In this document: positions 19,023 to 59,140 of the stretch, piece after piece
Numbering within the stretch: the stretch's first letter is position 1
How the letters are laid out: each line of letters starts with the position of its first letter
Source of the DNA: Terebella lapidaria
Taxonomy: Eukaryota; Annelida; Polychaeta; Terebellida; Terebellidae
Assembly: GCA_949152475.1 (NCBI GenBank)
Contig: OX424561.1
Span: 6,014,001 to 6,078,000 of the forward strand
Reading direction: 5' to 3'
DNA length: 64,000 nucleotides
The notes under the pieces: generated by a model
What the model was told of the DNA's origin: nothing
Seen by the model: the letters and a program-made list of their open reading frames with translations, nothing else
The model's database searches: none
Program-made: the position numbers and the translations under genes

Positions 19023-19430
19023 AATATAATCAGGTAGGGAACAGATTGTTAACATACATGATGGCAATGCAATGATGAATATTGTTGAACTGGCCATTAT
19101 CATAAACTGTACACATTATGTCAGTCATAATACATTGTATTGTACTTAACTGCATGGAGAAAGATGTAATTACCGGTATTGATATTATTAAATCTATAGA
19201 AATGTTTTGGGATCAGAAAGTATGATGACGGTATGATGTTTAAGACAATACGAGACCATGCTTCAAGAAAAAAAGACAGTTATAGAGTAAAGAACACAGC
19301 CCTTTTTCTCGCAAAAGAGAGGGGCGCTCTTCTGTTAGAGGTTGTGATCCTATTAGGACCAATATTGTACACCTTGTCATTGAATATTGCCTGTTGCAGA
19401 CATCAGACAAGACACTTTACACAAAAATAA
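19023..19430. other. 3' flank of TATDN3
   Basis: No exon. Holds a fragment (about 19290-19370, GATCCTATTAGGACCAATA) related to the interior of the TTAA-flanked element at 12.76-13.63 kb. Confidence 0.5.
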
Positions 19431-19436
19431 TTTATT
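19431..19436 (-). terminator. Polyadenylation signal of TATDN3
   Basis: AATAAA on the minus strand, about 100 bp past the TATDN3 stop codon at 19533. Canonical hexamer and a plausible short 3' UTR. Confidence 0.6.
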
Positions 19437-19532
19437 TGACTCCAGGAGGTATAAACATCATAAACACAAATCCAGGTATATCATTCTGCATTCTGATATA
19501 AAAATTGTCATAATGTGCCACAACACAAAATG

Positions 19533-22500: not shown

Positions 22501-25500
22501 CCTTGAAATGATCAACAGAAGCTAATATTTATCAAGGTGCATAACTTCCCTTTTTCAATGCACAAACATAATACACAAGGAAGTTTTATACATATCAGAA
22601 GCCGAATAATTCAGTGAGTTTGTACATACTTTTTCCAGGACACTCCTCTGGCTGTCTGGTGCTTCTCCCTGAATAGTCAGCATATAAAAACTAGACGTCA
22701 AGGCCTGAAGATGCCTTGGGGCATTTCGTGTGAGTTCTATTGCTACCTAACATTTACCTAAGAGACCGCGTCTAGAACCATGATGACTCTGAATCTGTCC
22801 GTGGTCAAAGTTTAAGTGACATACCCCGTCCTTAGGCATCTTTGCGTTTCGCTCTACGACGCACCGTTTCCGAGATACGGCCCAACAGGAAGTGCCGAGT
22901 CGGCGAAAAAAAAATTCGACACCAGGGGTCGTCTCGACCGAAGATACACACTAGACTAGTTTGTCTAGTGCCAGGAGGCCGAAATTGAGCTCCGTTTCGC
23001 TCTACGACGCACCGTTTCCGAGATACGGCTGAGACTAGTTTGTCTAGTGCCAGGAGGCCGAAATTGAGCTCCGTTTCGCTCTACGACGCACCGTTTCCGA
23101 GATACGGCCCAACAGGAAGTGCCGAGTCGGCGAAAATAAAATTCGACACCAGGGGTTGTCTCGACCCAAGATACCCTCTAGACTAGTTTGTCTAGTGCCA
23201 GGAGGCCGAAATTGAGCTCCGTTTCGCTCTACGACGCACCGTTTCCGGGATACGGCCAAACAGGAAGTGCCGAGTCGGCGAAAAAAAAATTCGACACCAG
23301 GGGACGTCTCGACCCAAGATACACACTAGACTAGTTTGTCTAGAGCCAGTAGGCCGAAATTGAGCTCCGTTTCGCTCTACGACATACCATTTCCGAGATA
23401 CGGCCAAACAGGAAGTGCCGAGTCAGCGAAAAAAAAAATCGACACCAGGGGTCGTTTCGACCCAAGATACCCTCTAGACTAGTTTGTCTAGTGCCAGGAG
23501 GCCGAAATTGAGCTCCGTTTCGCTCTACGACGCACCGTTCCGAGATACGGCCAAACAGGAAGTGCCGTGCCAGGAGGCCGAAATTGAGCTCCGTTTCGCT
23601 CTACGACGCACCGTTTCCGAGATACGGCCAAACAGGAAGTGCCGAGTCGGCGAAAAAAAAAATCGGCACCAGGAGTCGTTTTGACCCAAGATACCCTCTA
23701 GACTAGTTTGTCTAGTGCCAGGAGGCCGAAATTGAGCTTCGTTTCGCTCTACGACGCACCGTTTCCGGGATACGGCCAAACAGGAAGTGCCTAGTCGGCG
23801 AAAAAAAAATTCGACACCAGGGGTCGTCTCGACCGAAGATACACACTAGACTAGTTTGTTTAGTGCCAGCAGGCCGAAATTGAGCTCCCTTTCGCTCTAC
23901 GACGCACCGTTTCCGAGATACGGCCAAACAGGAAGTGCCGAGTCGGCGAAAAAAAAAATCGACACCAGGGGACGTCTCGACCGAAGATACACACTAGACT
24001 AGTTTGTCTAGTGCCAGGAGGCCGAAATTGAGCTCCCTTTCGCTCTACGACGCACCGTTTCCGAGATACGGCCAAACAGGAAGTGCCGAGTCGGCGAAAA
24101 AAAAATTCGACACCAGGGGACGTCTCGACCGAAGATACACACTAGATTAGTTTGTCTAGAACCAGGAGGCCGAAATTGAGCTCCGTTTCGCTCTACGACA
24201 TACCGTTTCCGAGATACGGCCAAACAGGAAGTGCCGAGTCGGCGAAAAAAAAAATCGACACCAGGGGTCGTTTCGACCCAAGATACCCTCTAGACTAGTT
24301 TGTCTAGTGCCAGGAGGCCGAAATTGAGCTCCGTTTCGCTCTACGACGCACCGTTTCCGAGATACGGCCCAACAGGAAGTGCCGAGTCGGCGAAAAAAAA
24401 ATTCGACACCAGGGGTTGTCTCGACCCAAGATACCCTCTAGACTAGTTTGTCTAGTGCCAGGAGGCCGAAATTGAGCTCCGTTTCGCTCTACGACGCACC
24501 GTTTCCGGGATACGGCCAAACAGGAAGTGCCGAGTCGGCGAAAAAAAAATTCGACACCAGGGGTCGTTTCGACCCAAGATACACACTAGACTAGTTTGTC
24601 TAGTGCCAGGAGGCCGAAATTGAGCTCCGTTTCGCTCTACGACGTACCGTTTCCGAGATACGGCCAAACAGGAAGTGCCGAGTCGGCGAAAAAAAAATTC
24701 GACACCAGGGGACGTCTCGACCGAAGATACACACTAGACTAGTTTGTCTAGAGCCAGTAGGCCGAAATTGAGCTCCGTTTCGCTCTACGACATACCATTT
24801 CCGAGATACGGCCAAACAGGAAGTGCCGAGTCAGCGAAAAAAAAAATCGACACCAGGGGTCGTTTCGACCCAAGATACCCTCTAGACTAGTTTGTCTAGT
24901 GCCAGCAGGCCGAAATTGAGTTCCGTTTCGCTCTACGACGCACCGTTTCCGGGATACGGCCAAACAGGAAGTGCCGAGTCGGCGAAAAAAAAATTCGACA
25001 CCAGGGGTCGTCTCGACCGAAGATACACACTAGACTAGTTTGTCTAGTGCCAGGAGGCCGAAATTGAGCTCCGTTTCGCTCTACGACGCACCGTTTCCGG
25101 GATACGGCCAAACAGGAAGTGCCGAGTCGGCGAAAAAAAAATTCGACACCAGGGGTCGTTTCGACCCAAGATACACACTAGACTAGTTTGTCTAGTGCCA
25201 GGAGGCCGAAATTGAGCTCCGTTTCGCTCTACGACGTACCGTTTCCGAGATACGGCCAAACAGGAAGTGCCGAGTCGGCGAAAAAAAAATTCGACACCAG
25301 GGGACGTCTCGACCGAAGATACACACTAGACTAGTTTGTCTAGAGCCAGTAGGCCGAAATTGAGCTCCGTTTCGCTCTACGACATACCATTTCCGAGATA
25401 CGGCCAAACAGGAAGTGCCGAGTCAGCGAAAAAAAAATTGACACCAGGGGTCGTTTCGACCCAAGATACCCCCTAGACTAGTTTGTCTAGTGCCAGGAGG

Positions 25501-28500
25501 CCGAAATTGAGCTCTGTTTCGCTCTACGACGCACCGTTTCCGAGATATGCATGAAAGCCTCAAGGATGAATCAGCAAAATTTCTTCCGAGCTCTAGGTCA
25601 AAGGTCGTTCGACGGAGTGATCCCAAAATCAATAGGGTTCTTCCTTGGTGGTATATGAACTCCCATGCAGAGAATACTTGCCATTGCATGAATACTTTTT
25701 GAGTTATCGATCGGAAACCAAGTCTCGAAATCAACCTTGATTTCATCCTCACGGACCTCACGGACCCCGGAGCCGCCTCCAAAACAATAGGGGTCTTCCA
25801 TGTAATATTTCTGACCAGTGGTGTAAATTTGGACAAGATCCGTTCAGGCGTTCCCGAGTTATTGCTCGGAAACCAAAACGGCGGAAAGTAAAAAAAAAAG
25901 AAGAAAAAAAAAAAAAAAAAAAAAAAACCAGACAAAACCATAAGGGCATTTCGGGCCAAAATGCCCTAATTAGCTCTTTTTTGCAAATATTTATTTTTAT
26001 ATTACATTAATTGTTTTTTTGTCTGTTGAAAATTATATCCAGTGTATTTCACAAATTTATGCATGTAATGCAACACACGCAATATTTATGATGTTACAAT
26101 CTACAATTTACCTGCACTGGGTGTACGCCAAGACAGGGCAAACAGAACTGTGGAAACCTGTAAAACCATGGAATATAAAGTGTCATTCTGTACATGTGTA
26201 TTGACATCTCCCATCAGGCTACAGTATATTAATTATATTGGCCATTCAACTCAATGTTAAATGATCTTACTTTGATGGTCCATAACACCTTCCTAAAAAA
26301 TTTGCCCAAAGGCTAAGACAGGTTACCGGACAATTTTGGTTTGGCCATGGCAGCATTGGCAGGTAACAGACCTTGAGATTTACCAATCAAGGTTCGCAGT
26401 GTGAACAAATGACCTTGAGATTTACCAATCAAGGTTATTCGTGTGAACTTTGATGTCACCATTACATGTATGTGTGCGGCATTTGATATTCCATATGTTC
26501 ATAATACAAAGATATATCTGGGTGGAATCGTTTAGGCCGCTCAGGTCAATTTACACATTACGAGTCAGACATTTGGCACTCAAGGTCATCTGACGTCAAG
26601 TTCAAGGTCATCATTAGTTGTGCCATATATGTCTTGCTATATGTTCATAATGCAAACATGAGCTCTATCTGCAAGCATTTCATCTATAGAGGCAAATCTG
26701 GGCATTTTTTGACCCCAAAATGGCTGTTTTGACCTTTCAAGGTCATCCAAGGTCAAATTCAAGGTCACCACACAAGTCGCCATAGATGACTTCCCATTTG
26801 AAAGTGCCAATTTCTAAGCTGTATCTTCAAGTGTTCTATGAGTGCAGTCCTGACAGCTCCCATTATGGAGGAAAAAAGTGCCGAAAATTTTTGAAGTCCA
26901 AAATTTTTTTCAAAGGGTGAAAATTTTTTTTGCCTAGAAATGGCCCAAAATGGACAATAATGCGATTTGGGCCGAAAAATTTTTTTTTCGCCGACCTGTC
27001 GAAAATTCAAAATGGCCGCCATACGCAGGCCGGCGATTCAAGGGCAACCAAACTTATAGGGCGTGTAAGTGAGATTTGAAACGTCACGTTATTTTACGTG
27101 ATTTGACCTTTCTGGTGACATTTGATTTTCCCGCCAAATTTTCGGGCCAATTCGTAAAATTCTACATATTCGAACTCCTGCAACTCACACGGAAATTATC
27201 GGAAAATTATCGTATGTTCGTACTTTGATCATGACCCGTTCCTACGATCGCTAACGATCTAAATATGCATTTTTCATAAGCATTTCATTCCATTTAAAAG
27301 GGATGAAAAACGTATGTTTTCATGTTCCAAGGTCATGATCTTGACGGGAGAAAAAAGCTCATTCCCTTTAAACTACGTGACTAGTATCCAAACCGTCGGT
27401 GGTGTTTGTGACTATATATGATGTGGCATATGTTCTGTGCACTTTTTGTTATAACATCACAAAAATAATCTTGTTATATTGGAATATGGAGTCCAAAAAC
27501 ATGCTGTGAAACACAACATAGATCGGGGGCAAATTGACCATGAAAAAATATCCATTCATTATTATAAACAGTGGTATGTTGTAGTTTGGAGCAAGTGTAA
27601 TTAAAAAAACATGAATTGCAACAATATTCTTAATAATATTTTTGTATGGTAAGTCAAGCAAAATCAGCAAAAATGACCACGTGGCATTGTTTGTCACCAC
27701 TACGTACCTAAATACGTCATTTTACGACATATATGAAACGAGACTTACAGGCCCTATACACATCACAGAGATACATATTGAGAATCTTTTGGAACAAAAA
27801 TCTCAAATCTGATCAGACAGTTTTTGAGAAAATGGCCGCCAAAGTTCAAAATTGACCGTTTTTCGACGAAAACGGCCGCCATTTTGAAAAAAAATTGAAA
27901 AATCAAAAAACTAAAAAATACCTCCTTCTCAAATTATTTTAAGGTATCTTTTCCCAAATTTTCAGAAAGATTAGACCGTAAACTTTAAAGATAAAAATGT
28001 GGACGGACGACGACGACGATGACGACGACGGACGGACGGACGACGGACGCAATGCCACGGCAATAGGTTATCGGACCATAGGTCCGGTAACCTAGAAAAA
28101 TCCCAGCCTAACCACTATGCTAGTTTTATCCCTCAACATATTGGGCATCGCGTGGTAAGCATGAATATATTTGACGACACATGGGATTTTTCGCTATTCT
28201 GCCTTGAATGGACCCGGGGTGAAAATACCCCAAATTATGGGTACTGATGCCCATGCAAAACCCCTTTGATTCCCCAGCTCTTGAGAAGAACGCCAACAAG
28301 ATACTGCCTTGAAAACCGGGTCATTATTTCCCAGCACTGCGTTCTTTCAGGTGAATATACACTCGTCCAGAAGTCTGGCCTAAAAAAATATATGAGGCGA
28401 TGTTTAACAACAGTTTCCCTTTAAATTGCCTAAGTGAGGTGAACGCTCGTTGATTGGCTGAGCGAATTACTCTACACTGCCCATCAGTGCCAACCCAGCC

Positions 28501-31500
28501 AAAGCGACGCGGAGAGCTACATGCTACATGACTGTTTCAAAGGTACATAACCATGATAACACTTCTGAATTTTAGAAATGTATTGCCAGACTACCTTGTG
28601 GAAAGGTCCAGTACATTTTGGAAGTCATCTGGTCTAATAGCCACAACTAATGCCGCCAATACGCCAGCCTATATTACAACAGAAACTGATATGTTCATTG
28701 CATGTATTATGTTACGAATCAATAGATCTACATGTCAACATCACATGTTACATAATAATTAATTGTGAAAATTTTTTACCTCCCTTGCTCTCTCTATGAC
28801 ATCAGAAAGATCCTATAGTACACAAACAAATTAGATCTGATTACATTGTATCATATGTTAGGCCTAAAAAAATTAATTTTCTGTTTCTCGTCCTCCTATT
28901 TCTTCAAAACTAGGTAGGGAGGGACTTTTTATTTTTTTTCATTTTTTATTTTGCAAAAAATGCCGTCCTCAGCTCAAGAGAAAACTGGGTAGGGAGGCAC
29001 TTTTTATTTTTTTATTTTTGGTGGGACAACATTTCAAACATATGAATATAAATTTGATTTATTGATTGGTTGAAAAAAAAAAACACTTGCGCACAGACTC
29101 ATTCAAGCTCAAATAAATCAAGCCTCTAGAATTGAAATCATGTGTAACACATGACTTTAATGAATTCACATCTAGAAGTTTGATTCATTTGGGCTTGAAA
29201 CCTCTTGGCCGGGCACCTTGGCACTACTGGTGTGCCATCATCCTAGCAGTCAGCACAGACAGGATGATTGTGGTTACTAGTAGTATTATTATCAAAAAAC
29301 GTCAGTTGATAATATATTTCAATGATGAGTAATTGTGGAGATCCGTTCTATCAGTTAATATGTCCATTGAAGTATTCATGAGGAATATAGTAAATCAATT
29401 CTTGATCACAATTTTATATGTATTATTACATACATGTAACCACATAGAATAACTGTTTTTGAAAACTGGTAGCGTCTTTGTCTCATTTGGTGGAGAGTGA
29501 AAAGAAGGAGGTAAGTTAAATATATGCCTAAGTTGCATGCTGTGATTCAGTGTCTCGATCATTCACTATCCTCAAAATAAGGGCGGGAACACTTTTTATT
29601 TTTTATTTGAGAATTGCAAATAAAAAATTAGCCCAAGGGCTAAGAAAGGTTACCGGACAATATACATTTTAGATATTAGCCTTTTGTCCAGTGACCTTGA
29701 AAATAATTTTTCAACAAATATATCACTTCTAGTATGTCCACAATAAATTCCTAAGCTGTAAAGTCGATAATAAGTGAGATATTAGCCATTCTGTGATCGG
29801 TGATGTGACCTAGAAAATGAGGTCAAAGTTCAAGTTCATGAAAAGATTCAGTATATATCATTCCTCTATATTCGCAATTGATTCCTAAGCTGTAAAGATG
29901 ATAATAAGCGACATATTAGCCATTTTGTTCTCTGACCTTGAAAATTGGATCAAAGTTCAAATTCTAGATCACCAAAATATTCAGCATACATCATTTCCTA
30001 TATGTTCACTATGGACCCCTAAGCTGTGAATTTGATAATAAGAGAGATATAAACCATTTTTTATTCTGACCTTGAAAATAAAACGACTGGCCTTGAAATT
30101 TAGGTCAAAGGTCAAATTCAAGGTCATGAGAATATTCAGAATATATCATTTCCTATATGTTCACAATTGATTCCTAAGCTGTAAAGTTGATAATAAGCAA
30201 GATATTAGCCATTTTGTCCTGTTGACCTTGAAAATGAGGTCAAAAGTCAAATTCAAGGTCACTAGAATATTCAGCATATATCATTTCCTATATGTTCACA
30301 ATTGATTCATAAGGCGTAAAGTCACTAATAAGCAAGATATTGGCCATTTTGTCCTGTGACCTTGAAAATGAGGTCAAAGGTCAACTTCAAGGTCACAAAA
30401 ATATTCAGCATATATCATTTCCTATATGTTCACAATTGATTCCTAAGCTGTAAAGTCGATAATAAGCGAGATATTAGCAATTTTGTCCTGTGACCTTGGA
30501 AATGAGGTCAAGGTCAAATTCGAGGTCACGAGAAAATTCAGCATATATCATTTCCTATATGTTCACAATGTATTCCTAAGCTGTAAAGTCGATAATAAGC
30601 GAGATATTAGCCATTTTGTCATGTGACCTTGAAAATGAGGTCAAAGGTCAAATTCAAGGTCATGAGAATATTCAGCATATATCATTTCCTATATGTTCAC
30701 AATTGAATCCTAAGCTGTAAAGTCGATAATAAGCGAGATATTAGCCATTTTGTCCTGTGACCTTGAAAATGAGGTCGAAGGTCAAATTCAAGGTCACGAC
30801 AATATTCAGCATATATCATTTCCTATATGTCCACAATTGATTCCTAGTCTCTAATCTCAATATTAAGTGAGATATTAGGCTTAATGTGTCCCATTATAAA
30901 GCATAGGAGAATTTAACATGGGAAAGTCCCATTTGGGCCGAGTTTGGGCCCAAAATGGCCCACTTCGAGCGATTCAAGGGCAACGAAATTTATACATGTC
31001 ACAGAGGTACATATGAGGAGTGTTATGCATGAATAAGAAAAAAAGCTACTGAACAGATTTTGAGAAAACGACAGCCAAAGTCCAAAATTGGCCATTTTTC
31101 GACGAAAACGGCCGCCATTTTGAAATAATTGCGAAAATCAAAAAACTAAAAAATACCTCCCTCTCGAAATATTTTTAGGCATTTTTGTGCAAAATTTCAG
31201 AAAGATTCGATCGTAAACTTTAAAGATAAAAATGTAGACGGACGACGACGGACGACGACGGACGACGACGACGACGACGGACGACGGACGCAACGCCACG
31301 GCAATAGGTTATCGGACCAAAGGTCCGGTAACCTAAAAATCCAGGAGCTGCTTTTGAACACAGGCGGACGGGGACGAGAAACAGAAAATTAATTTTTTTA
31401 GGCCTTATTGTGAATAAAAAACTGACTGAGATTTGTTCTACTTTTATTTTACATAGATCTATGTATGAAATGATATATTATACTCTGTATAATATAGATT

Positions 31501-36411: not shown

Positions 36412-39400
36412 ATGGCGACAAAGACAGAAGAGAATCTTGTTCAGTGCCGAAGCGTGAAAACTCTGCAAAGTATAGAGAACCAGATATGTACAAGCGTCGA
36501 CGATATAGTTGCAAAAAACATCTACTGCACAGAAGAGGAAAAAGCAAAAATCCGCGAACGTTTTAGAGAGGTGAAGATCGAAGGCTTGTTGTTATGGAAT
36601 GCCTAATCACTAATGCCATTCACAATTTATAGTCTACGGGTAACTTAGGGCAGCCAGCGGGCCTCACAATGCTAGTCTACGGGTGCATTGAATGTACAGC
36701 TGTACTAAATTTTTTGGCCCATGCAATTTGGTCAGAGACGGTAACCTATGTTGAAAATGGCAACAATAATATATACCCACGGCCGGAGCAAGTAACTTTT
36801 CTGAAATCACAAAATTGAGGTAAAATATTTCAAGACAAGATCGAGGTGGGTATTTTTTTATTTTTTTATTAGAGTCTAGATTCTATTTTTTTTTATTTTC
36901 GCATTATTTCCAAAGTGGCGGCCATTTTTGACAAAAAACAGCCAATTTTAGACTCTGGCAGCAGTTTTTATCAAAAACTGTCTGATCACTGTTGAAATTT
37001 TTGTTTCAAAAGATTCCCCTCACTAGTATGTACCTTTGTGATATTTACACTGTATAAGTTTTGTTGCCCTTGAATCGCCGGTCTGCACGTTGTGGCCATT
37101 TTGATTTATTCTACAGGTCGCTGAAAAAAAATTGTCCGAAATCAAGTTTAGACTTCTACGAAGCCCCTGAGGTGACATACTGAAAAATATTTATCAATCT
37201 GTGCGCACAAATTAACAAATCGAGCACACGGTTTACCAAACCATGCGCACAATTTAACAATTCGTGGCCACGAATTAACAATCCGCGGGCACGAAATACT
37301 AAAATCGTGGGCACGGAAACTAATTCGCTGCCACGAATTGATAAATCGTGTCCACGGATTAGTTATACCAATTCGTGGCCACGAAATACTAATTCGTGCG
37401 CACGAATCGTTAAATCGTGCCCACGGATTATTTAAGGTAATCCGTGTGCACGAATTGACCTATCCCAAATCCAATTTGTCCGAGTCTTTTTATGTCATTT
37501 TCAACATATTCTGCAAAACGTTAATATTAGCCAAAGAGAAGTTTTTTGACGTATTTTGTGAAACTCGGACAACTTTTGGGGGCGTTGGGATAGGTCAATT
37601 ACTAATACATGCGCACGAATTAGTATTTTGTGGCCATGAATTAGTATTTCGTGCACACAAATTAGTATTTCGTGGCCACATATTAGTATTTATGCGCATG
37701 AATTAGTAATTCGTAGTGTTCGGACTCGGTGAAAATTTCAAGCTCGATCATCGGTGGCACAGTTCCGACCGATGATCGAGCAAGCTCGAGCTTTCAGGCA
37801 AATTCGGAAACTGGACGATAATAGGAGATATGAATGTCCAGATGCTCAATGATGCAACGTGGCATAAATTAATACCAGAAATGGTAACTATTGGCCTCTT
37901 TGGGTGTTTGTTCACGATCAAAATTTAAGCAGATATGCTATTTTGAAGAGAAACAAACAAAACACGACCGAGATTTCGATTTTGTGTGAAAATAATTGAT
38001 CCCCATCCCTGTTGATGTCAGGCCCATTCGATAGATGGCGCTACCTGTGTTTGCGCGATTCATTTCCTGTCAAATTTCAGTGTTTACCATGTTTATGAGA
38101 TATGTTTTTGTTCCTTTCAAATAAAATTTATTCATCTTAAATGATCGATCATTCAAGTTGATGCTCGAGTGCTCGTTTCTGGCCAAAGCTCGACCGATTA
38201 ATCGATCATTCGAGTGCTCGACCTAACACTAGTAATTCGTGCACACGAATTGTTAAATTGTGCGCACTGAATTTTTGATATGTCATCTCAGGGGCTCCGT
38301 AGATTTCTACTATCCGTTTTTGACCAAAATTATACTGTGAGTCTCAGAGGCAATGGCATGTATATTTAGGCGGATTTGGCATTTAATGTCACAGTAACCA
38401 ATAATGTTTATTACAAAAGAATACAATCCTTTGCACTTTCCATAGATTTACACAAGCACACTTCATGAGCACATATCGATTGACGGAAAGACCTGGGCTG
38501 TTGTACAAGATGAAGATGAACCCACAACAGGTAAATAGTGTACATCATAATTCGCCGTACACACAACCATCAGGTCAACCTGTTGGTGGGAACTCATAAT
38601 ATTAATGGATACATGTATAGTATAGATAATCATGAATGTAGAATCTTCTTTTATGATGAATTCATACATTTCTATGATATGTACCAAACACATGGGTTCA
38701 ATGGAATGCATAAATTATTAACATACTATGTAACTTCTCCAGCAGTAATGATTCTCTGGATTTATCTCATTTTGGGATTAATCTCCATAGCATACCTGAC
38801 TGACTGTGTACATTATCCATCCCTCTGTTTACAGAAATTGAGCCAGTTAACACGGAGAAGCAGAAGCACTTGAGAGAGGTACTGTACCCGGCCGTGGGCA
38901 GCCAGATGGTCGACACCATGAAGCAGCGTCACTACTGCCCCCAAAAGTGTGCTCATGTCTATGCCAAACAGTGCCTCGCAGAATGCATGTATCTTGTAAG
39001 TGTCTCGTGGGAAAAATGTATGTTAGAGAGTTACAAAAAATGGTTACTGTCCATGGGGAGTATAGAATAGCAAATCTTTACTACAAAAACTAGGGGGAAA
39101 AGTATGTTTGTTGGAAATTGAATGCAGATTGTTATCTCAATAGCTATCTGATACTCACAGATACTGTAAAAACACTTTTTTTCGCGGGTATTAAATTACG
39201 CGGTTTTTACCCCCAGGCAATTTCGCAGGGATTTAATTTCGCGGTTCAGTGATTGCCAGTAATCGCGTAAAGAATTTGCAGTTGATGGACATCACAGTAT
39301 CAATGCAATTGGTGTGAGAAATGGAAAGTCACAGGAAATCAAATCAGATTTTATTTGAAATTTTAAACACAAACGTCAAACAAGTCATGCTTAGTCTGCA

Positions 39401-40212
39401 AAAGCTTGAACTTGGTGCAGATGTCATCGGCACCAAGTTCAAGCACGTGCCATGTGCACATGTCAAGTGCCATGCAGACGCTAGCGACCGGTATCTGGGC
39501 ACTGTAACTAACGTAATTCTGCGCGTTATGATTAGCAACAGCGTATTGTGCTATGGACGGCCACAAACCTCAAAATTAATTTTCGCGGGAGACTTATTTC
39601 AGCGAGGTATTTAATTTCGCGGATCTACCCTTACCGCGAAATACGCGAAATAAGTACCGCGCGAAAATTAGTACTTTTACAGTAATCAGACTTGAGCATT
39701 TAACAGCTCTACTGAATAATTTCCACCAGTATTAAATATAATCCACATATGTTAGCATTGAAGCTTGAAGCTATGCTTTGCAGGAGGGGGGGGGGGGGGG
39801 GGGTATGGAGTATAAATCACACTATTGACATGATTGATGTTTTTGTTTTTACACAGGACAAGTTGAAGGCTGATCCTGAGATAGATCCAGTACAACTGCC
39901 CGAGGAATTCTGTAATCTCAATCCCAGTAGTGACATGGTCACTTGCGCAGAAAAAATATCCACTGTGACAAAGGTGATTTGTTGTTGACCTTGGCAATAT
40001 AATATATGCACCTACAGACTACAGTATTGAATAGTTTTACATCACATGCTAGTTTGACATGAATTTTAGCAATAAAACATCTCCTTGTACATAGGTGCAT
40101 TTGTATTTTGTGAATGATATGAATTTTCCCCTTTTTCTTGCAGACTATAATGGGCACATCAGAAAGTGTTGCAGACATTGTAGACGTTCTCAGATTTTCC
40201 CAAAATGCATGA
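36412..40212 (+). CDS. NSL1: NSL1, Mis12 kinetochore complex subunit, 5 coding exons, 196 aa
   Basis: Subunit of the Mis12/MIND complex (MIS12, PMF1, DSN1, NSL1), which links inner centromere chromatin to the Ndc80 complex. Exons: 36412-36570, 38446-38530, 38835-38995, 39857-39973, 40144-40212, all with GT-AG introns and consistent phase. It was recognised from its order of features: an N-terminal helical segment (VQCRSVKTLQSIENQ), HISIDGKTW (human has SINGQAW at the matching place), a helix with a TMKQRHYCPQK motif matching human ATKRKQYPRK, and the final helix ending DIVDVLRF (human FSQVLRM). Similarity is low, but order, spacing and position next to a divergent TATDN3 all agree. The ATG has a good context (AAGATGG). 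At 196 residues it is shorter than human (281): it stops just after the VLR helix, without the tail that in human holds the Ndc80-binding PVIHL motif. A later alternative exon could exist. Confidence 0.8.
37157..38301. mobile_element. Snap-back element 1: TACGNAGC termini, array of CGTGNNCACG palindromes
   Basis: Termini TACGAAGCCCCTGAGGTGAC and complement of TACGGAGCCCCTGAGATGAC, flanked by GACTTC (37151-37156) and GATTTC (38302-38307), a 6-bp duplication with one mismatch. The subterminal body consists of self-complementary words such as TTCGTGGCCACGAA and TTCGTGCGCACGAA separated by TTAxTAA. It holds two nested inserts: a hairpin with ends TTGACCTATCCCAA at about 37456-37602, and the 518-bp element at 37714-38231. 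It lies in NSL1 intron 1. Confidence 0.75.
37714..38231. mobile_element. Nested inverted-repeat insertion with 8-bp duplication
   Basis: Ends TAGTGTT and AACACTA with subterminal CTCG-rich inverted arms (for example GCTCGATCATCGGT / ACCGATGATCGAGC at 37742-37784). Flanked by GTAATTCG at 37706-37713 and 38232-38239. The flanking octamer is also an array word of the host element, so the duplication could be partly coincidental. Confidence 0.6.
39162..39684. mobile_element. MITE with TACTGTAAAA termini in NSL1 intron
   Basis: Inverted ends TACTGTAAAA / TTTTACAGTA, probably with a TA duplication. Subterminal TTCGCG-type words (TTTCGCGGG, AATTTCGCGG) are repeated on both arms. Inside is the perfect 14-bp-arm hairpin CTTGAACTTGGTGC / GCACCAAGTTCAAG (39408-39446). 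No coding. Confidence 0.75.
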
Positions 40213-40379
40213 AATTACACATCCAAACATGTTATATAAAATACTGACACTAGAAGACTACCATTTTGAACGAGATGTCACAATAACCATCTAGTACTTA
40301 ATATGATGGATTGATCAATTATTGGTGTAGTTAACTTTTGTGTATATATACCTGTATGTATTTTGTGTGCTGAATGCCA

Positions 40380-40385
40380 AATAAA
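40380..40385 (+). terminator. Polyadenylation signal of NSL1
   Basis: AATAAA about 170 bp past the NSL1 stop (40212), followed by a GT/T-rich stretch. Confidence 0.65.
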
Positions 40386-40888
40386 ATGAATTACCTACCA
40401 TGCACATTGTTATTATTCATTCGAAAGATTCAAGCCATTGCTCATATATAAGTCTGCCATAAGCAAAGGCAGGTTTCATTGATATTTTTAATGTCACATT
40501 TAAAGATTCCACAGAATTAGAGAGGAGTTCTAGACAATGTAAATGAAAAATTCACGGTACATAAACTGTACATGTCCTGTCATTGGTCAATTCAAGGGCA
40601 CGAGAATATTCAGCTTACATGTAACTGGACCAAGTTATTCTAGCAAGGTAATTCGTAGGTTTTGTTTACATTAAATAAACAGATATGTTCGACGTAATTG
40701 TAACACGTATACAATCATTATATATAAGGCTGCGATAGCTGTGTGTGTAACACCATGGATGCACACACGATTTGTGTTGTCGGTGTTGTGAGATTATGTC
40801 AAGATGTCGGTATTTGGTGACAATATAAATCAAGATGTCTGCGCCCATATGAACCATATCTTCCGTGATATCAGAAAAAAGTTCAATA

Positions 40889-43800
40889 ATGGACAGTGAA
40901 CAGGACAAATTTAAAACTTCTTTCAAATATTTTAAGAGTCGCAACCCACCTCCCGATTTATCGAAAGTGGTAGACTTCGATTTGCTCAATTCACAACAGG
41001 TACTTTCGACTTCCGTTCCTTTTTACACATATTATCGCCCGGTATTTTCCCCCTCGCCCCTGTGCAGGGGATATACTGTGTGTGTACTTACACAACCGCA
41101 CTCGACTGACAACAGTATGAAAATACTGGACATATCTATAAGCCTATGCGCATCCATTCTTTTCATTTTATACATTTTTGATGTGAAAAGTTACGGAAGC
41201 TCTGAAAGGACATGGTGAAAAAAAAAAAAATCTCGTATATACGACATATTATCTCGTATATACGATTTTTGTATATCTCGTATATACGACATATTACCTC
41301 GTATATATGACTTGTTTGTATCTCGTATATACGACTTGCGTATCTCGTATATACGACTTGTGTATCTCGTATATATGACTTGTATATCTCGTATATACGA
41401 CATATTATCTCGTATATACGACTTGTTTGTATCTCGTATATACGACTTGCGTATCTCGTATATACGACTTGTGTATCTCGTATATAGGACTTGTATATCT
41501 CGTATATATGACATAATTATCAATGAACTGGCAATTCGCATTTCCTCAGTGGTCTTCCATAGATGCCAGCGATGTAGATCCATATACAAGTCGTACCGTA
41601 TTGACGCGCATATAAGAACATAAGAACACTTCTCATAAACTAAAGAATGGGGACCTAATTAAATCCCTGGCACACTTACTCATAACTGTTTGGGTGCTAC
41701 ACTGTTCCAAGCCTATAACCATGATAACACACACATTTGACATATACAATTTAATTTCATATAATTTTATAAGGCCACAAGAGTATATGTTTAATGTCCA
41801 AATGCTGCACATGTAAAATTGCAATGCTTTTGCCCGAAAGACGTGTAATTTTTCACAATGTGGAATCATTAACATACAAATGTTCTTATATGTGGGTGAT
41901 GTTTTGATTGCATTCTTTTTAAAATTCACATATTTCTTTGTCCGAATATGAGGACATTCTCACATATAAGGACATGTGCTTATATGCGCGTCAATACGGT
42001 ATATACGAGATATACAAGTCGTATATAGGCCTACGAGATTATGTCGTATATACGACATATACAAACTCGTATATACGAGATAATATGTCGTATATACGAG
42101 ATATACACAAGTCGTATATACGAGATAATATGTCGTATATACGAGATATTATTTTTTTTCACCATGTCCTATCAGAGCTTCCGTAAAAAGTAGATCTATT
42201 GAATCTTCCAATCTGATGTACATGAAAACCAAAACTGAAAACAAACAATTTTTATTGCAAAAATATCGTGAAATTGTCATTGGAATTTATTTTGATACCC
42301 AACCCACCGTAAAACATTGGACTGTGAATTCCACTCTTCCTGGTGAGTACAGGTATCAATTAAACATATATATATATATATTGCTATCTGAATTTTCATT
42401 GTGAAATTTTCTTGCAGATACTTGAAATCAAAGCGAAATGTTCTACCAGTTTGCCGTGTATCGAAGGCATTGCTCCTGTTGAAAGCTGGAAAGTATATCA
42501 ACTAAATAATTTATCAGGTATAACAGCTACTACCAGTAATATGTTATAAAGCTATATTTGTAAACATGGATTTAAATTAAACAAGTATAGTTCATATGCG
42601 AGCCATCAGTCCTAAATTCGCCGCAATCCCAAATTCGCCAACGTGGATTTCAGGCCTTGTAATGTAAATGAAACTAACAAGTTCGATCGTCAGTCGAGAC
42701 TCTGATATCCAATCTTTGTTCCAGTAAATTATTTTCCACAAAACGAGCTTCTGAGTTCTGATAATATCAAGTTGGCGAATTTTGGGATGCTGCGAATTTA
42801 GGACGGATGGCTCGTGTAGTGCTAGTCTCACATCACACATGGAAGTGGATGCTGTGTCGTCATTGTGGTGACCATGGTTATTGACATACAACAACTAAAC
42901 TTTGATTCCATATCCTTGTGTGTATGATTATTATCCTGATTATGGTAATTAAAACCAACGTATAATTTTTTTTTCACATTTTTCCTTGAAGATTTCTACT
43001 TCATAAGAAATCCATTCGAACCACATGGCCAGCGTTACTGGGCATACCGGTGTCTACGGGAGCTTCCAGACAAGCCAAATGTCTGCAATCTAGATGCTCA
43101 CATGACGCGTGATGAAACAGAAAACATATGGGACAACAGGTCTGTGAAGCCGATAGTCATCATACAGAAGAATGACTCCAAATGTCTCAATTACAAGGTT
43201 AAATTCTTGTATATGCTATTTCACCATGGTACTGCTATCTGCTAATCATGGTAATGATATAGTAGTATAAAATTTTGCTTCTGTGGATACAGACACAATA
43301 CCAAGCCTGGTGAAAAGACATTGATGGACAAGCTGAGATGGGTGACATTGGGTTTTCATCATAACTGGGAAACAAAGGTAACATTATGATCATGTTATAA
43401 GTACATAATGCTACACTAATCATGCCAATAGATATACGTTTATCAAATACCTAATGGATATGCTTTGACAACTTGGTTTTGTCTGCAAAGAGACAGGGAT
43501 GAGATTTTGAAATGAAAATCTGACTTTGGCACTAAACAAAAAATATTTTTCATAATTTTTGGATAGAGTTCAGGCTTGTCCTAGTCCACTGTATACTTGC
43601 TCAAATGAATGTCCCCATTGACTCACTCAGTCCATTTGAATCCACTCCCCTGTCTCCCATCCCATGATACAGGTTTACAACACAGAGGAGCGTGCGCCGT
43701 TCCCGGCAGACTTGAGTTACCTGGTACAGTATATCGTGGCGGCTCTGGAGCCGGGGAGTAGATACCACGCGGAGGCTGCTATAGTCAATTACTACCACAT

Positions 43801-44884
43801 GGACTCGACCCTCGCCGGACACACCGACCACTCCGAGTTTGACCTCAGTGCCCCGCTCATCTCCGTCAGGTGAGTGGGATTGGTGAGCGGGAGGAAATAT
43901 CATCCATTTTCTATTCTGTATATTTCATGCATGTGCATATGAAGACTTGAAGAATAAATCTAATTTATTTAAATTAAAAAAACTTTTTAAAGAGAAACTG
44001 TATTTTGCTGCTGGCTAATTTATTTCATGTTCTGAACTGTAGTTTGGGTTTCTTCAAAATAATTGATATTGAATTTGACAGTCAGTAATGCTGATTATGT
44101 TCATCATGCAATCATGATACAATTTATATAAACATGATAAGAAAGATAGAAATTAGCAATCAGTTGTAACTTGTATGTAGCCAAAGGGTCATGGTAATAA
44201 TGAGATAATTGTATTGTAATGTTCCCTCACAGTTTTGGTCAGCCTGCAATATTTCTGATTGGTGGCACAACTAAAACAACTGAACCAGTACCCATGTTCC
44301 TGCGCAGTGGAGACATTGTTGTGATGTCAGGCAGATCTCGTTTAGCCTATCATGCCATACCCCGGGTCATTTCGGAGCCGACGGATGTACTGTCACCATG
44401 GCTACAGGAAGTTAGTACTACAGGCAAAGCAAAAGCTGATCCTGTGATTTGGGATTCCGAGGGAAAAAGTCATGGCGACAGTGACATCACTGCAGCTATT
44501 GGCACTGGGAATTTCTGTGAGGCGGGTGACGAAGAAGATTTGCAGCCTTCCAAAAAACTCCAAAAAATGGAGGGCATGAAGATGGTGTCCAAAACTGTGA
44601 GTACGGGGGGAAAAAATTGTGAGGTTTGTTGCACGAAGGGCAAAGAATCCTGTCTGGATGGAATCCCCAGTGATTTGAATATTTGTGATGGTGTTGACAA
44701 AACGTGTGATTACGCAAGCCAAATAAATAACCACATCAAACATAAACTCAGTGATGTGGATTTCAATCCGTTTGGACTATACTTGAAAAGTTCAAGGATA
44801 AACATCAACGTGAGACAAGTTTTCAAGTACGACGAGAATTCAACCAGACTACCTTGTGGTCAAGCTGACTTGTCTAACAGCTGA
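40889..44884 (+). CDS. ALKBH1: Nucleic acid dioxygenase ALKBH1, 6 coding exons, about 445 aa
   Basis: Fe(II)/2-oxoglutarate dioxygenase of the AlkB family; animal ALKBH1 acts on tRNA (5-methylcytosine and 1-methyladenosine) and has been linked to DNA 6mA and AP-site cleavage, in mitochondria and nucleus. Exons: 40889-40999, 42418-42517, 42992-43197, 43306-43377, 43673-43869, 44233-44884. Hallmarks: the N-terminal [13 protein letters not shown] segment, [46 protein letters not shown] with the iron ligands HTD (GHTDHSEFD) and the distal His (YHAIPRV), [24 protein letters not shown], and the 2-oxoglutarate Arg pair in [10 protein letters not shown]. The catalytic set is complete. The junction of exons 3 and 4 is uncertain: AAG|gttaaa with acceptor at 43306 keeps frame, as does a donor at 43208 with acceptor at 43293. 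Between the distal His and the Arg pair lies about 100 residues more than in human, including seven Cys. Confidence 0.95.
41192..42185. mobile_element. Snap-back element 2: TACGGAAGC termini, TCGTATATACGA arrays
   Basis: Termini TACGGAAGCTCTGAAAGGAC and its near-perfect complement, flanked by AAAAGT at 41186-41191 and 42186-42191. Inside each end are tandem self-complementary words TCGTATATACGA spaced by ATATC, GACTTG or similar (41230-41515 and 42000-42150). A further inverted pair ACCGTATTGACGCGCATA at 41595 and its complement ending 42000 marks a nested 406-bp element. It lies in ALKBH1 intron 1. Confidence 0.8.
42599..42814. mobile_element. 216-bp MITE in ALKBH1 intron 2
   Basis: Inverted arms CGAGCCATCAGTCCTAAATT and CGAGCCATCCGTCCTAAATT (on the complement), extended by ATTCGCC words. 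A truncated relative lies at 10282-10450. Target duplication not clear. Confidence 0.75.
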
Positions 44885-44957
44885 CGTCACTCAACAGTTT
44901 TTGGTTGGTTGTTTATTGGATTTTACTTGTGTGTCATCACTATGTGTAAACTGTAAA

Positions 44958-44963
44958 AATAAA
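44958..44963 (+). terminator. Polyadenylation signal of ALKBH1
   Basis: AATAAA 74 bp past the ALKBH1 stop at 44884. Confidence 0.7.
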
Positions 44964-45289
44964 ACTTTAATTGAAATAATTGAAATGCTTGAGTTCATTT
45001 CATTGACTAAAGTGAGGAGCACTAAAAATCCTTAAAACTTAACTTGATCAATGTCACTAGCCCAATGGGTATGTAATACATAATACTAGCCCAGTTGGTA
45101 TGTAATACATATAGAAATGTACTAATATATATAGCCGTTAGTCAGATCTGGCCATAAGGCAAGGGTGTGGTAGCTCACCGGCACATCATGAGAATTGCTC
45201 AAAGTACTGATTTTCCAAAGGATAAATTGTTACACTGATCTTCATTGTCAAAACATATTCAAAAATGTTGCCGAACACACTTTTTTCGT

Positions 45290-45800
45290 ATAATACGAAA
45301 TCAAGTGACATTTTGAAATGTTTTTTTCGTTAATGATATACAAGGGGGGATATTTTTTTTTGGCTGGAAATCACTAGAAACGAATAGTGACTTGATTTGG
45401 GACAATTTTTTTTTTCGCTGACCTGTCAAAAAATCGAAATGGCTGCCCCACGCAGACCGTAAATTCAAAGGCAACAAAACTTATACACATCACAAAGGAA
45501 CACAGGTAGAGTCTTATGCATGATTTGGAGAAAATTTGTCTGAATAGATTTTGAGAAAATGGCCGCCAAAGACAAAAATCATCACAAAAAAAAAATTTCA
45601 ACAAAAAAGGTCGTTTTGACATTTCAAGGTCATTGAAAGTCAAATTCGAGGTCTCCTGCAATATATGATTTCCCATTCGAATGTGCCAATACCTAGGCTC
45701 ATATCTTTAAGTGTTCTCAGAGTTTACCCTGCAAAGCTCCCATTATGAAGGAAAAAACTTGATTTGGGACAAAACAAAATTTTCCACCGACATGTCAAAA
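45290..45800 (+). repeat. Diverged fragment of composite repeat R1a
   Basis: Shares with R1a the words GAAAATGGCCGCCAAAG, TTTTTTTTTCGCTGACCTGTC and CATTTCAAGGTCATTGAA, but both termini are missing. The 300 bp before it (44965-45290) shows nothing. Confidence 0.6.
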
Positions 45801-45810
45801 ATTAGGCCAA

Positions 45811-47045
45811 GGGCCAAAGATAGGTTACCGGACAATGTTTAATATTTTAAATGTTAGCCAGGTCACTGGTTAAATTCAAGGTCAAGACAATATTCAGCAT
45901 ATATACTATTAAGCATATATCATGTCCATAGTTGATTACTAAGGTGTAAATTCAATAATCAGAGAGATATTAGCAATTTTGTGCTGTGGCCTTCAAAATG
46001 AAGGCAAAGGTCAAATTCAAGGTCATCAAAATATTCAGTGTATCATTTTCTATATGTCCACAATTGATTCCCAAGCCATACAGTCAATAGAGGAGCAAAA
46101 TATGAGCCATTTTGTCCTGTGACCTTGGAAATGAGGTCAGAGGTCAAATTCAAGGTCACGAGAATATTCAGCATATATCATTTCCTATATGTCCACAATT
46201 GATTCCTAAGCTGTAAAATCGATAATAAGTGAGATATTGGCCACTTTGTCCTGTGACCTTGAAAATGAGGTCAAAGGCCAAATTCAAGGTCATGACAATA
46301 ATCTGCATATATCATTTCCTATATGTTCATAACTGATTTCTAAGCTGTAAAGTCGATAACAAGCGAGATATTAGCCATTTTGTCCTATGACCTTGAAAAT
46401 GGGGTCGAAGGTCAAATTCAAGGTCATCAGAATATTCAGCATATATAATTCCTATATGTCCACAAGTGATTCCCAAGCTGTAGAGTAGATAATAGGCGAG
46501 ATACAAGCCATTTTGTGCTCTGACCTTGAAACTGCGGTCAGAGGTCAAATTCAAGGTCACGAGAATATTCAACATATATAATTTCCTATATGTCCACAAT
46601 TGATTCCTAGTGTCTAATCTCAATATTAAGTGAGATATTAGGCATAATGTGTCCCATTATAAAGCATGTTAGAATTCAACATGGGAAAGTCCCATTTGGG
46701 CCGAGTTTGGGCCAAAATGGCCCACTTCGAGCAATTCAAGCGCAACGAAATGTATAGACATCATAGGAGTACATATGAGGAGTGTTATGTATCAACAAGA
46801 AAAACAGTTACTGAACAGATTTTTAGAAAATGGCCGCCAAAGTCCAAACTCAGGCATTTTTCGTCGAAAACGGCCGCCATTTTGAAAAAAAAATGCGAAA
46901 TTCAAAAAACTAAAAAATACCTCCTTCTTGAATTATTTTTAAGAATTTCTGTGCAAAATTTCGGAAAAATTCACTTGTAAACAAAAAACATAAAAATGTG
47001 GACGACGGACGACGATGGTCGACGGACGCAACGCCATGCCAATAA
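45811..47045 (+). mobile_element. Composite repeat R1b, second copy, right end lost
   Basis: Left end ATTAGGCCAAGGGCCAAAGA then TAGGTTACCGGACAAT. A 133-bp array of about 6 units (45840-46640) follows, then the GGCCGCCATTTTG segment and a short GACGACGG stretch ending near 47045. The terminal ATCGGACCAAAGGTCCGGTA part is absent. Apparent reading frames here are shadows. Confidence 0.7.
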
Positions 47046-47201
47046 TCGAATAAAAAAAGGAAAAAAAAAAACAACTCTCAGGCTAGCCCAAGGAATATTT
47101 CAGTTAATTTTCAGAAAAATTCATCAAGACAAAAGAAAAAGTTTATTGCCGGACGGACGGACGGGCGCCTATCTCGATTGGCCGCTGAAATTACAAAACT
47201 G

Positions 47202-47909
47202 TACGGAGCTTCTGAGAGGACATGGAAGAAATATTTTTAGCACATCGTTATTGCGTTCCCTCGCAATATTATCGCGTTCCCTCGCATTCCGGATCGCGTT
47301 CCCTCGCGATCTTATTGCGTTCCCTCGCAATCCGGATCGCAGTCCCTCGCAATCCGGATCACGTTCCCTCGCGATATTATCGCGTTCCCTCGCGATCTTA
47401 TTGCGTTCCCTCGCGATATTATCGCATTCCCTCGCGATCTTATTGCGTTCCCTCGCATTCCGGATCGCATTCCCTCGCGATCTTATTGCATTCCCTCGCA
47501 ATCCGGATCGCGTTCCCTCGCGATATTATCGCGTTCCCTCGCGATCTTATCGTGTCCCCTAGCGATCTTATTGCGTTCCCTCGCATTCCGGATCGCGTTC
47601 CCTCGCGATCTTGTAGAATAACCTTCTCAGAATTCATTGGCGTCAGCACAATGCGAGGGAACGCGATCCAGAATGCGAGGGAACGCAATAAGATCGCGAG
47701 GGAATGCGATAATATCGCGAGGGAATGCGATCCGGATTGCAAGGGAACGCAATAAGATCGCGAGGGAACGCGATCCGGATTGTGAGGGAACGCAATAAGA
47801 TCGCGAGGGAACGTGATCCGGAATGCGAGGGAACGCGATAATATTGCGAGGGAACGCAATAACCATATGTCAAAAAATATTTCTTCCATGTCCTTTCAGC
47901 GGCTCCGTA
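47202..47909. mobile_element. Snap-back element 3: TACGGAGC termini, GCGTTCCCTCGC array in giant hairpin
   Basis: Termini TACGGAGCTTCTGAGAGGAC and complement of TACGGAGCCGCTGAAAGGAC, flanked by perfect 6-bp AAACTG (47196-47201 and 47910-47915). The left arm (47252-47611) repeats 21-22-bp units of GCGTTCCCTCGC plus GATCTTATT, AATATTATC or ATTCCGGATC. The right arm (47651-47868) has the same units inverted, so almost the whole element can fold back around a ~40-bp centre. Confidence 0.85.
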
Positions 47910-47915
47910 AAACTG

Positions 47916-57663: not shown

Positions 57664-59140
57664 TTTTAGCTTACCGGGCCTATGGTCCGATAAGCTTACC
57701 GGGCCTATGGTCCGAGAAGCTATTGTCGTCAGGTAGCGTCCGGCGTCCGTCCGTCGGCGTCCGCGTCGGCGTTGTCAAATGCTGGGAAAAATCTGTTAGA
57801 TGAATATTGCTGTAATTCACAAAATATGTTCTATGGGCCCATATTTCCGGACCATTTTTTTTTTCGTCGATTGAATCGTTTTTTTTTTCTAAAATGGCGG
57901 CTATTTTTGTCGAAAAATGGGGCCAATTTCGGAATTTGGCGGCCATTTTCTCAAAAACTGATCAGATTTGAGATTTCTGTTTCAAAAGATTCCCCTGATA
58001 TACCTCTGTGCTGTGTATAAGTTTCGTTGCCCTCGAATCGTCGGTCTGCGTGTGGCAGCCATTTTGATTTTTTCGACCGGTCCCAGATATAACTTTCCCA
58101 TGTTGATTTAGCCTATGCTTTATAATGGGGACAAATTTCTCCTAATATCTCACTCAATTTTGGGATTAGACATAGGTATCAATTGTGCACATATAGGACA
58201 TAGGTATCAATTGTGCACATATAGGAAATTATATATGCCGATTATTCTCGTGACATTGAATTTGACCTTCGACCTAATTTTCAAGGTCGCAGCAAAAAAT
58301 GGCTAATATCTCGCTTATTATCGACTTTACAGCTTAGGAATCAATTGTTGACTCATAGAAAATGATATATGCTAAATATTCTCATGACCTTGAACTTGAC
58401 CTTTGACCTTATTCTCAAGGTCAGCGCACAAAATGGGTAATATCTCGCTTATTATCAACTTAACAGCTTAGGAATCCATGGTTGACATATAGGAAATGAT
58501 ATATGCCGAATATTCTGATGATTTTGAATCTGACCTTTGACCTCATTTTCAAGGTCAGAGCACAAAATGGCTAATATCTAGCATAGACATAGAAGAGAGA
58601 TGGACTGCCAACTCTGATATCACTCTCTCTGTTTCTAGTCATTGAGCTTGAGGTCACAAAAGGTCAGAGGAAGATGGTAGTTACACTTCCGTTGTCAACG
58701 TATAACGTCGTATTGCCATTGTTCATTCCTGACGATCCTCAGCGTGTTGACGTCACGTACGGTATTCGACGTATTTTGACAATTCAATTTTGCCATGAAA
58801 CTTCAAACCGGAAATAAAGTACCCATGTTCCTCTGGTCACAAGCTCAAGGTCACTGAGGTCGAGTTGGCAGTCCATCTCTCTTCTATGTCTATGATATCT
58901 AGTATATTATCTACTTTACTGCTTAGGAATCAATTGTGAACTCATAGGAAATGATGTTTGCCGAATATTTCGATGACCTTGAACTTGATCTTTGACCTCG
59001 TTTTCAAGGCCAGAGCACGAAATCGCTAATATCTTGCTTATTATCGACTTTACAGCTTAGGCATCAATTGAGGACATATACATGTAGGAAATTATATATG
59101 CCGAATATTCTTGTGAGCTTGAATTTGACCTTGGACCTCA
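57664..59140 (-). mobile_element. R1-related composite repeat, inverted, with 133-bp array
   Basis: Starts with two copies of AGCTTACCGGGCCTATGGTC, a variant of the R1 terminus, then CGTCCGTCCG microsatellites and a GGCGGCCATTTTC segment. About six 133-bp units read in reverse (58140-59140: GCTAATATCTCGCTTATTAT, CAGCTTAGGAATCAATTG). An hAT-like MITE interrupts the array at 58582-58894. The left terminus is not seen. Confidence 0.7.
58582..58894. mobile_element. 313-bp hAT-like MITE with perfect 8-bp duplication
   Basis: Arms CATAGACATAGAAGAGAGAT and complement match for 33 bp. Flanked by ATATCTAG at 58574-58581 and 58895-58902, which fits the hAT duplication pattern nTnnnnAn. It interrupts a 133-bp unit, so it is younger than the array. 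Confidence 0.85.

What the first reader, a model, noticed from the sequence alone, without database searches (positions are those of the whole stretch)
37157..47909. A family of snap-back elements with shared ends but different palindromic interiors
Elements at 37157-38301, 41192-42185 and 47202-47909 share ends of the form TACGRAGCYYCTGARRKGACAT and each has a 6-bp target duplication (GAYTTC, AAAAGT, AAACTG). Yet the interiors are unrelated in sequence: CGTGNNCACG words, TCGTATATACGA words, and GCGTTCCCTCGC units. What is conserved is architecture: short self-complementary or inverted words repeated in tandem on both arms, so each strand can fold on itself. The same termini with independently generated palindromic fillers suggests either repeated capture and amplification of a palindromic word during replication, or selection for foldback structure (cruciform or long dsRNA). 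Superfamily unknown; 6-bp duplications would suit Dada-like elements.
Basis: partly seen in the sequence, partly recalled or inferred. Interest (0 to 1): 0.85.

Follow-up and report, generated by a model that had tools for sequence, protein, structure and literature searches.

The report
Transposons with palindromic repeat-array ends
Three snap-back elements in this stretch look like short, gene-less members of a family of IS3EU-like jumping genes whose ends are arrays of small palindromes repeated about every two turns of the DNA helix; two gene-carrying relatives elsewhere in the same genome have the same architecture, so the arrays look like a working part of the transposon and not random filler.

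Summary
The three elements share TACGR.. ends and 6-bp duplications (one with 1 mismatch). The terminus occurs 3,451 times in the 761.6-Mb genome; the reversed control 0 times. Of 35 distinct paired elements, 26 have perfect 6-bp duplications and 30 at most 1 mismatch; off-register null 17 of 2,338. Ends and duplication fit superfamily IS3EU (TAYGG..CCRTA, 6 bp; PMC12730594), not Dada. Of ten PF24764 (integrase-core) loci held, two were read with long flanks; both lie in transposons (10.3 and 8.8 kb, perfect 6-bp duplications) whose arms are palindromic arrays. Word sequence differs between families, but the repeat unit is about 20-22 bp in six of six word families; self-complementary centres 10-11 bp apart appear in 9 of 12 arrays, not in family B. 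Best reading: extended transposon-end binding arrays for the transposase or a partner protein, kept and enlarged in gene-less copies. Protein binding is inferred. The transposases that move the window's own families were not found. Selection for hairpin pairing is not supported (symmetric word decay 8 seen, 8.9 expected).

The parts
37151..37156 (.). target-site duplication of element 1 (GACTTC)
   Evidence: 1 mismatch to GATTTC at 38302-38307
37157..38301 (+). element 1 (family A, CGTGNNCACG words), 1145 bp including nested insertion
37200..37456 (.). family-A array, about 21-bp step
37610..37713 (.). second family-A array, 21-bp step
37714..38231 (.). nested hAT-like insertion TAGTGTT..AACACTA, 8-bp duplication GTAATTCG; not part of the ancestral element
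38302..38307 (.). target-site duplication of element 1, right copy (GATTTC)
41186..41191 (.). target-site duplication AAAAGT
41192..42185 (+). element 2 (family C, TCGTATATACGA words), 994 bp
41230..41512 (.). family-C left array, steps 21-24 bp
41596..41999 (.). inner TA-flanked inverted-repeat element CCGTATTG..CAATACGG, present in 6 of 9 family-C copies by pattern
41999..42152 (.). family-C right array, steps 21-25 bp
42186..42191 (.). target-site duplication AAAAGT, right copy
47196..47201 (.). target-site duplication AAACTG
47202..47909 (+). element 3 (family B, GCGTTCCCTCGC words), 708 bp
47248..47612 (+). family-B left array, 15 exact TTCCCT words, all one way
47652..47862 (-). family-B right array, 10 exact words, all the opposite way
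47910..47915 (.). target-site duplication AAACTG, right copy

Best explanation
The three elements are non-autonomous members of an IS3EU-like superfamily of cut-and-paste DNA transposons. The outer ~22 bp (TACGG...GACAT) is the cleavage end. The arms behind it are arrays of a unit of about 20-22 bp (two helical turns), palindromic or nearly so, in most families with a second dyad half a unit away. The arrays most likely act as multi-site end-recognition arrays, in the way that Tn7 ends hold several 22-bp TnsB sites, bound by the transposase or by a partner protein encoded by the autonomous copy. The word sequence is lineage-specific while the unit length is kept. Arrays grow and shrink by duplication or loss of units, and inverted arms let gene-less copies collapse to end-to-end arrays that snap back. 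Shown: termini, duplications, arrays in two coding elements, common step, gene-less derivatives. Inferred: protein binding, which protein it is, and that the window's three families use a transposase of the same kind.
For: Genome: 1760+1691 terminus hits, 0 for the reversed pattern. Duplications 26 of 35 perfect, 30 of 35 with <=1 mismatch, null 17 of 2338; four 4-kb regions picked by position hold no terminus at <=4 mismatches. PF24764 gives 133 matches in this genome and rings in 0 of 14 control genomes. Two of the multi-copy open frames were fetched with longer flanks, and both sit in transposons with arrays: F, C12:16210198-16220545, duplication AGAACC on both sides, and a second copy C12:31041967-31052268, GACATA on both sides; G, C4:19695657-19704456, TTTAAG on both sides. 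F arms: TACGCGTA + TTAATATTAA unit, 26 of 27 intervals exactly 20 bp; G left arm: TTTTCGCTGCAGCTAAAA-like words, 18 of 22 intervals 20 or 21 bp. Gene-less relatives L090 (AGGAAC both sides) and L094. Strongest lag is 20-22, or about twice that with 20-22 next or tied, in 12 of 12 arrays of 6 word families. Family-A steps: 221 of 267 are 21 bp; family B: 60 of 71 are 21 or 22 bp. F and G proteins: PF24764 E 1.3e-35 and 8.2e-33; best NCBIfam match IS481 transposase E 3e-4 and 6e-4.
Against: No autonomous copy with the window's own TACGGAGC..GACAT ends was found: large copies L039, L073, L074 and L075 carry no PF24764-like frame. The eight best PF24764 loci (L079-L086, 1.5-kb flanks) showed neither such ends nor palindrome arrays. 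F and G transposases are 53% identical with 18 of 22 terminal bases alike, yet their words are unrelated; this fits a faster-evolving partner protein at least as well as the transposase itself. F and B ends share only 9 of 17 bases beyond TACGG (shuffles reach this in 1.1%). Second dyads 10-11 bp away were not seen in the two family-B arrays or the G left arm. A copy with only 5 words (L019, 178 bp) has a perfect duplication, so long arrays are not strictly needed, or were lost after insertion. No protein-DNA data.
Confidence: 0.6

Rival explanations
1. The arrays bind an accessory DNA-binding protein of the transposon or a host factor, not the transposase; the transposase reads only the outer 22 bp.
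For: F and G share 18 of 22 terminal bases and 53% transposase identity but have unrelated words; about 6 kb of F and 4 kb of G were not read.
Against: None direct; a second gene, if any, was not seen (the PF02816 search did not complete).
Confidence: 0.25
2. Selection for snap-back structure itself (cruciform, dsRNA or siRNA precursor) maintains the palindromes.
For: Very stable folds; strictly inverted arms in 9 of 9 family-B copies.
Against: In family A, symmetric two-sided decay of words is 8, expected 8.9 by independence, so no sign of compensatory change (decay on both sides of any kind is 23 against 16.3 expected); inverted arms alone would give a hairpin without short palindromes at a common two-turn step; the arms of coding element F lie about 9.5 kb apart.
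Confidence: 0.06
3. Neutral replication slippage or template switching repeatedly amplified whatever palindromic word lay near the ends.
For: Higher-order periods of 43, 69, 111 and 128 bp; adjacent word centres alike 34% against 24% for any pair; family-A copies with 5 to 31 words.
Against: Does not explain a 20-22 bp step in six of six word families, or arrays on both arms of coding element F.
Confidence: 0.09

Closest known systems
IS3EU superfamily of eukaryotic DNA transposons (passages of PMC10045372 and PMC12730594 seen)
   Same: TA..TA ends (TAYGG..CCRTA in fungal families), 6-bp duplication, long terminal inverted repeats, transposase related to IS3/IS481
   Different: No palindromic unit arrays are mentioned in the passages seen; direct comparison with Repbase IS3EU transposases was not possible
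Tn7 / Tn7-like ends with TnsB-binding sites (passages of PMC11406308 seen)
   Same: Several ~22-bp binding sites in each end; DDE transposase of the retroviral-integrase type (the latter recalled)
   Different: Bacterial, few sites (four, overlapping, in the right end), not described as palindromic; a likeness of working principle only
Galileo / Foldback-like elements (passages of PMC4168063 seen)
   Same: Long inverted arms, internal tandem repeats that expand, coding and gene-less forms
   Different: Galileo is of the P superfamily with a 7-bp duplication; the tandem repeats described in one D. willistoni copy are ~140 bp
Dada elements (recalled)
   Same: 6-7 bp duplication
   Different: Dada inserts in multicopy RNA genes; the 35 sampled insertions have 35 different duplications and no RNA gene was found near those scanned

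Membership tests
IS3EU | termini TA..TA, TAYGG..CCRTA | tested here: met
   A, B, C and F families; G has TACAG at one end, window element 1 TACGA at one end
IS3EU | 6-bp target-site duplication | tested here: met
   26 of 35 perfect, 30 of 35 <=1 mismatch; F two copies and G one copy perfect; L094 has 7 bp
IS3EU | terminal inverted repeats over 30 bp | tested here: met
   F left and right ends match over the 40 bases printed with 2 differences; element 2 arms 123 nt, 93% complementary
IS3EU | DDE transposase related to IS3/IS481 | tested here: met
   for coding relatives F and G only: PF24764; IS481 model E 3e-4 and 6e-4, far below its curated cut-off; a third PF24764 protein, L080, matches IS481 6e-14 and IS3 8e-6
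IS3EU | transposase falls inside the IS3EU/GingerRoot clade | not testable with these tools
   no IS3EU reference protein in hand
IS3EU | alpha-kinase gene beside the transposase (stated for fungal TET+ families, PMC12730594) | not tested
   PF02816 search did not complete
Dada | insertion into multicopy RNA genes (recalled) | tested here: not met
   0 tRNA genes in 37 loci, 0 Rfam matches in 20 loci, 35 different duplications in 35 elements
Foldback/Galileo (P superfamily) | P-type transposase | tested here: not met
   coding relatives F and G encode PF24764; the window's own families have no known transposase

The most novel reading that the evidence does not exclude
A eukaryotic transposon superfamily uses multi-site ends built from a two-turn palindromic unit whose length and symmetry are conserved while its sequence is replaced between lineages, so that related transposons in one genome each carry a private address code, and gene-less copies amplify the code into snap-back arrays.
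Probability: 0.45. Interest if true: 0.78.

Novelty: new variant of a known kind. Interest (0 to 1): 0.62.

Why it matters
If the arrays are end-recognition sites, one genome holds at least six parallel versions of the same protein-DNA problem: same geometry, different letters. That makes it possible to test how a transposon changes its recognition sequence, how non-autonomous copies compete for one machine, and how foldback elements arise. I saw no description of such arrays in IS3EU in the listings of my searches (with 40 of 43 papers listed, 62, 91 with no paper found) or in the passages of three of those papers; most papers were not opened, and I know of Repbase reports only by recall and did not search them.

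Tried and rejected
Rejected: Dada assignment; hairpin selection; CG-N6-CG as a universal rule (it holds for families A to D; in all 260.5 kb then held, overlapping loci included, arrays of >=4 words were 57 at CpG distance 8, but also 3 at 4, 15 at 10, 2 at 11, 24 at 13 and 1 at 14, and none at 5, 6, 7, 9, 12, 15; F words carry CGCG and G words do not fit). L039 as an autonomous copy: its 9.7-kb pair of ends shows no transposase frame and is probably two elements. Large family-C copies L073, L074, L075: no transposase frame. L053: a tandem duplication behind a family-A end, no transposase. Eight best PF24764 loci: no IS3EU-type ends or arrays within 1.5 kb. AlphaFold2 model of the F transposase: mean pLDDT 53, not used for a fold search. 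PDB sequence search: two weak integrase-core matches, best E 0.074. Transposase fragments against Pfam: only a weak Clr5 match, E 5e-4. Not run: promoter scan, phage and plasmid searches, any other genome.
Full report
What is there. Elements at 37157-38301, 41192-42185 and 47202-47909 are confirmed by sequence, by terminus search (6 matches; shuffles mean 0.01) and by 6-bp duplications (GACTTC/GATTTC, AAAAGT, AAACTG). Element 1 holds a nested hAT-like insertion (37714-38231, duplication GTAATTCG) and element 2 a TA-flanked inner element (41596-41999) that a pattern finds in 6 of 9 family-C copies. Without the nested insertion element 1 is about 620 bp.

Genome-wide test. Only about the first 100 places are listed, all on contig C1, so my sample of families A and B is from C1 and the window; I fetched 30 loci with the search and 20 regions by hand. 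From these, the family-C loci and the window I obtained 35 distinct paired elements: 16 family A, 9 family B, 9 family C and 1 unassigned; window elements are among them (element 1 as L001). Of the 35, 26 have a perfect 6-bp duplication and 30 at most one mismatch; the same comparison at shifted registers gives 17 of 2,338 with at most one mismatch. The 5 that fail are L018, L036, L049, one of the two in L054, and L078. Of 87 distinct terminus sites at <=2 mismatches, 70 have a partner at <=4 mismatches within 6 kb (sites with identical flanks count once). I looked at what follows 14 partnerless places: 13 have 3 or more words of their family within 600 bp and 1 (L015) has none. Family C (TACGGAAGCTCTGAAAGGACAT, <=2 mismatches) has 100 + 86 hits. 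Four 4-kb regions picked by position, not by match, hold no terminus at <=4 mismatches.

The arrays. Family A words are CGTG-SS-CACG with an 11-bp spacer RWTTRNYAAWY that is itself self-complementary (283 words in 16 elements); 221 of 267 steps are 21 bp. Family B words GCGTTCCCTCGC stand at 21 or 22 bp in 60 of 71 steps counted on one strand and point one way in the left arm and the other way in the right arm in 9 of 9 copies; the middle piece is inverted in 2 of the 8 copies where it could be read. Element 2 (family C) has steps of 21-25 bp apart from the gap between its arms. A further word type D (CTCGATNNATCGAG, about 22 bp) lies in L039 at 8490-8733 and 9205-9262; its ends could not be established. 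Families A to D share CG-N6-CG; F and G do not, so this is not a general rule.

Coding relatives. Two papers, of which I saw passages only, say that IS3EU transposons end TA..TA (TAYGG..CCRTA in rust fungi), usually make 6-bp duplications and have transposases related to IS3 and IS481 (PMC10045372; PMC12730594). A PF24764 (integrase core) search gave 133 matches in this genome and none in 14 control genomes. The best eight loci (L079-L086) showed no IS3EU-type ends and no palindrome arrays within their 1.5-kb flanks. A request for seven of the multi-copy frames was too large; I then fetched two (L087, L088). Both turned out to lie in transposons with palindromic arrays. Element F is C12:16210198-16220545 (10,348 bp, AGAACC on both sides), with another copy at C12:31041967-31052268 (GACATA on both sides) and three more places at 97-100% identity on C1, C2 and C23 whose duplications I did not read. 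Its arms are 20-bp units of TACGCGTA and TTAATATTAA; it encodes an open frame of 420 residues with PF24764 at E 1.3e-35. Element G is C4:19695657-19704456 (8,800 bp, TTTAAG on both sides); its left arm has words like TTTTCGCTGCAGCTAAAA at 20-21 bp, and it has a related frame of 385 residues. F and G proteins are 53% identical over 311 residues; both best match the IS481 transposase model in NCBIfam at weak E-values (3e-4, 6e-4). Likely catalytic residues in F are D163, D222 and E264 (my reading); D222 and E264 are invariant in a six-protein alignment, while D163 lies outside some of the fragments aligned. Gene-less relatives of F and G exist as snap-back elements (L090, 876 bp, AGGAAC on both sides; L094, 833 bp, 7-bp CATCCAC on both sides).

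What it means. Across 12 arrays from 6 word families the strongest repeat lag is 20, 21 or 22 bp, or about its double with 20-22 next or tied. Strong self-complementary centres exceed the mean of base shuffles in all 12, though by a single centre in one family-B arm; neighbouring centres 10-11 bp apart occur in 9 of 12, and not in the two family-B arms or the G left arm. A unit of about two helical turns, present in the arms of coding elements, is what one expects of multi-site transposon ends. Tn7 ends hold several 22-bp TnsB sites (passages of PMC11406308). I therefore take the arrays to be binding arrays of the transposase or of a partner protein. This step is inference. That F and G have like transposases and like outer ends but unrelated words leaves a partner protein as a serious alternative.

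What it is not. Selection for pairing of the strands is not supported: in family A symmetric decay of the two halves of a word is 8, expected 8.9; decay on both sides of any kind is 23, expected 16.3, as old words would give. Block duplication reshapes arrays, but a slippage origin alone does not predict a common unit length. The Dada reading fails: 35 different duplications in 35 elements, no tRNA gene in 37 loci and no Rfam match in 20 loci.

Limits. The transposase that moves the three window families was not found. The alpha-kinase test did not complete. Genome counts are those the search tool reports and may be lower bounds. The structure prediction of the F protein was too poor to use.

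Noticed in passing
window 13906-25547: Several long tandem arrays of 147-148 bp units (up to about 13 copies, 86-95% matches); similar sequence follows the left end inside the family-C copy L074 (by eye).
   Followed up: no
window 37457-37600: Inside element 1 a ~140-bp stretch flanked by inverted TTGACCTATCCCAA / TTGGGATAGGTCAA looks like a second small nested inverted-repeat element.
   Followed up: no
L039 8490-8733 and 9205-9262: A fourth palindromic-word array (CTCGATNNATCGAG, 22-bp step) with a second array about 470 bp away; its ends were not found.
   Followed up: partly
window 45860-46645, 29718-30878, 58201-58579: 134-bp tandem repeats of similar sequence at three places in the window, one apparently in reverse orientation.
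   Followed up: no
L079-L086: A second group of PF24764 genes, some apparently interrupted by introns, scoring higher against the Pfam model than F and G; L080 matches IS481 at 6e-14; L082 and L083 lie about 113 kb apart with equal scores; no IS3EU-type ends within 1.5 kb.
   Followed up: partly
L053 1511 and 4314: A family-A terminus with a short array lies in a 2.8-kb tandem duplication on C1.
   Followed up: partly
family-C copies L063, L069: The inner TA-flanked element has its own palindromic word (ATAAGGACATGTCCTTAT in L069, near forms in L063), so a snap-back element sits within a snap-back element.
   Followed up: no
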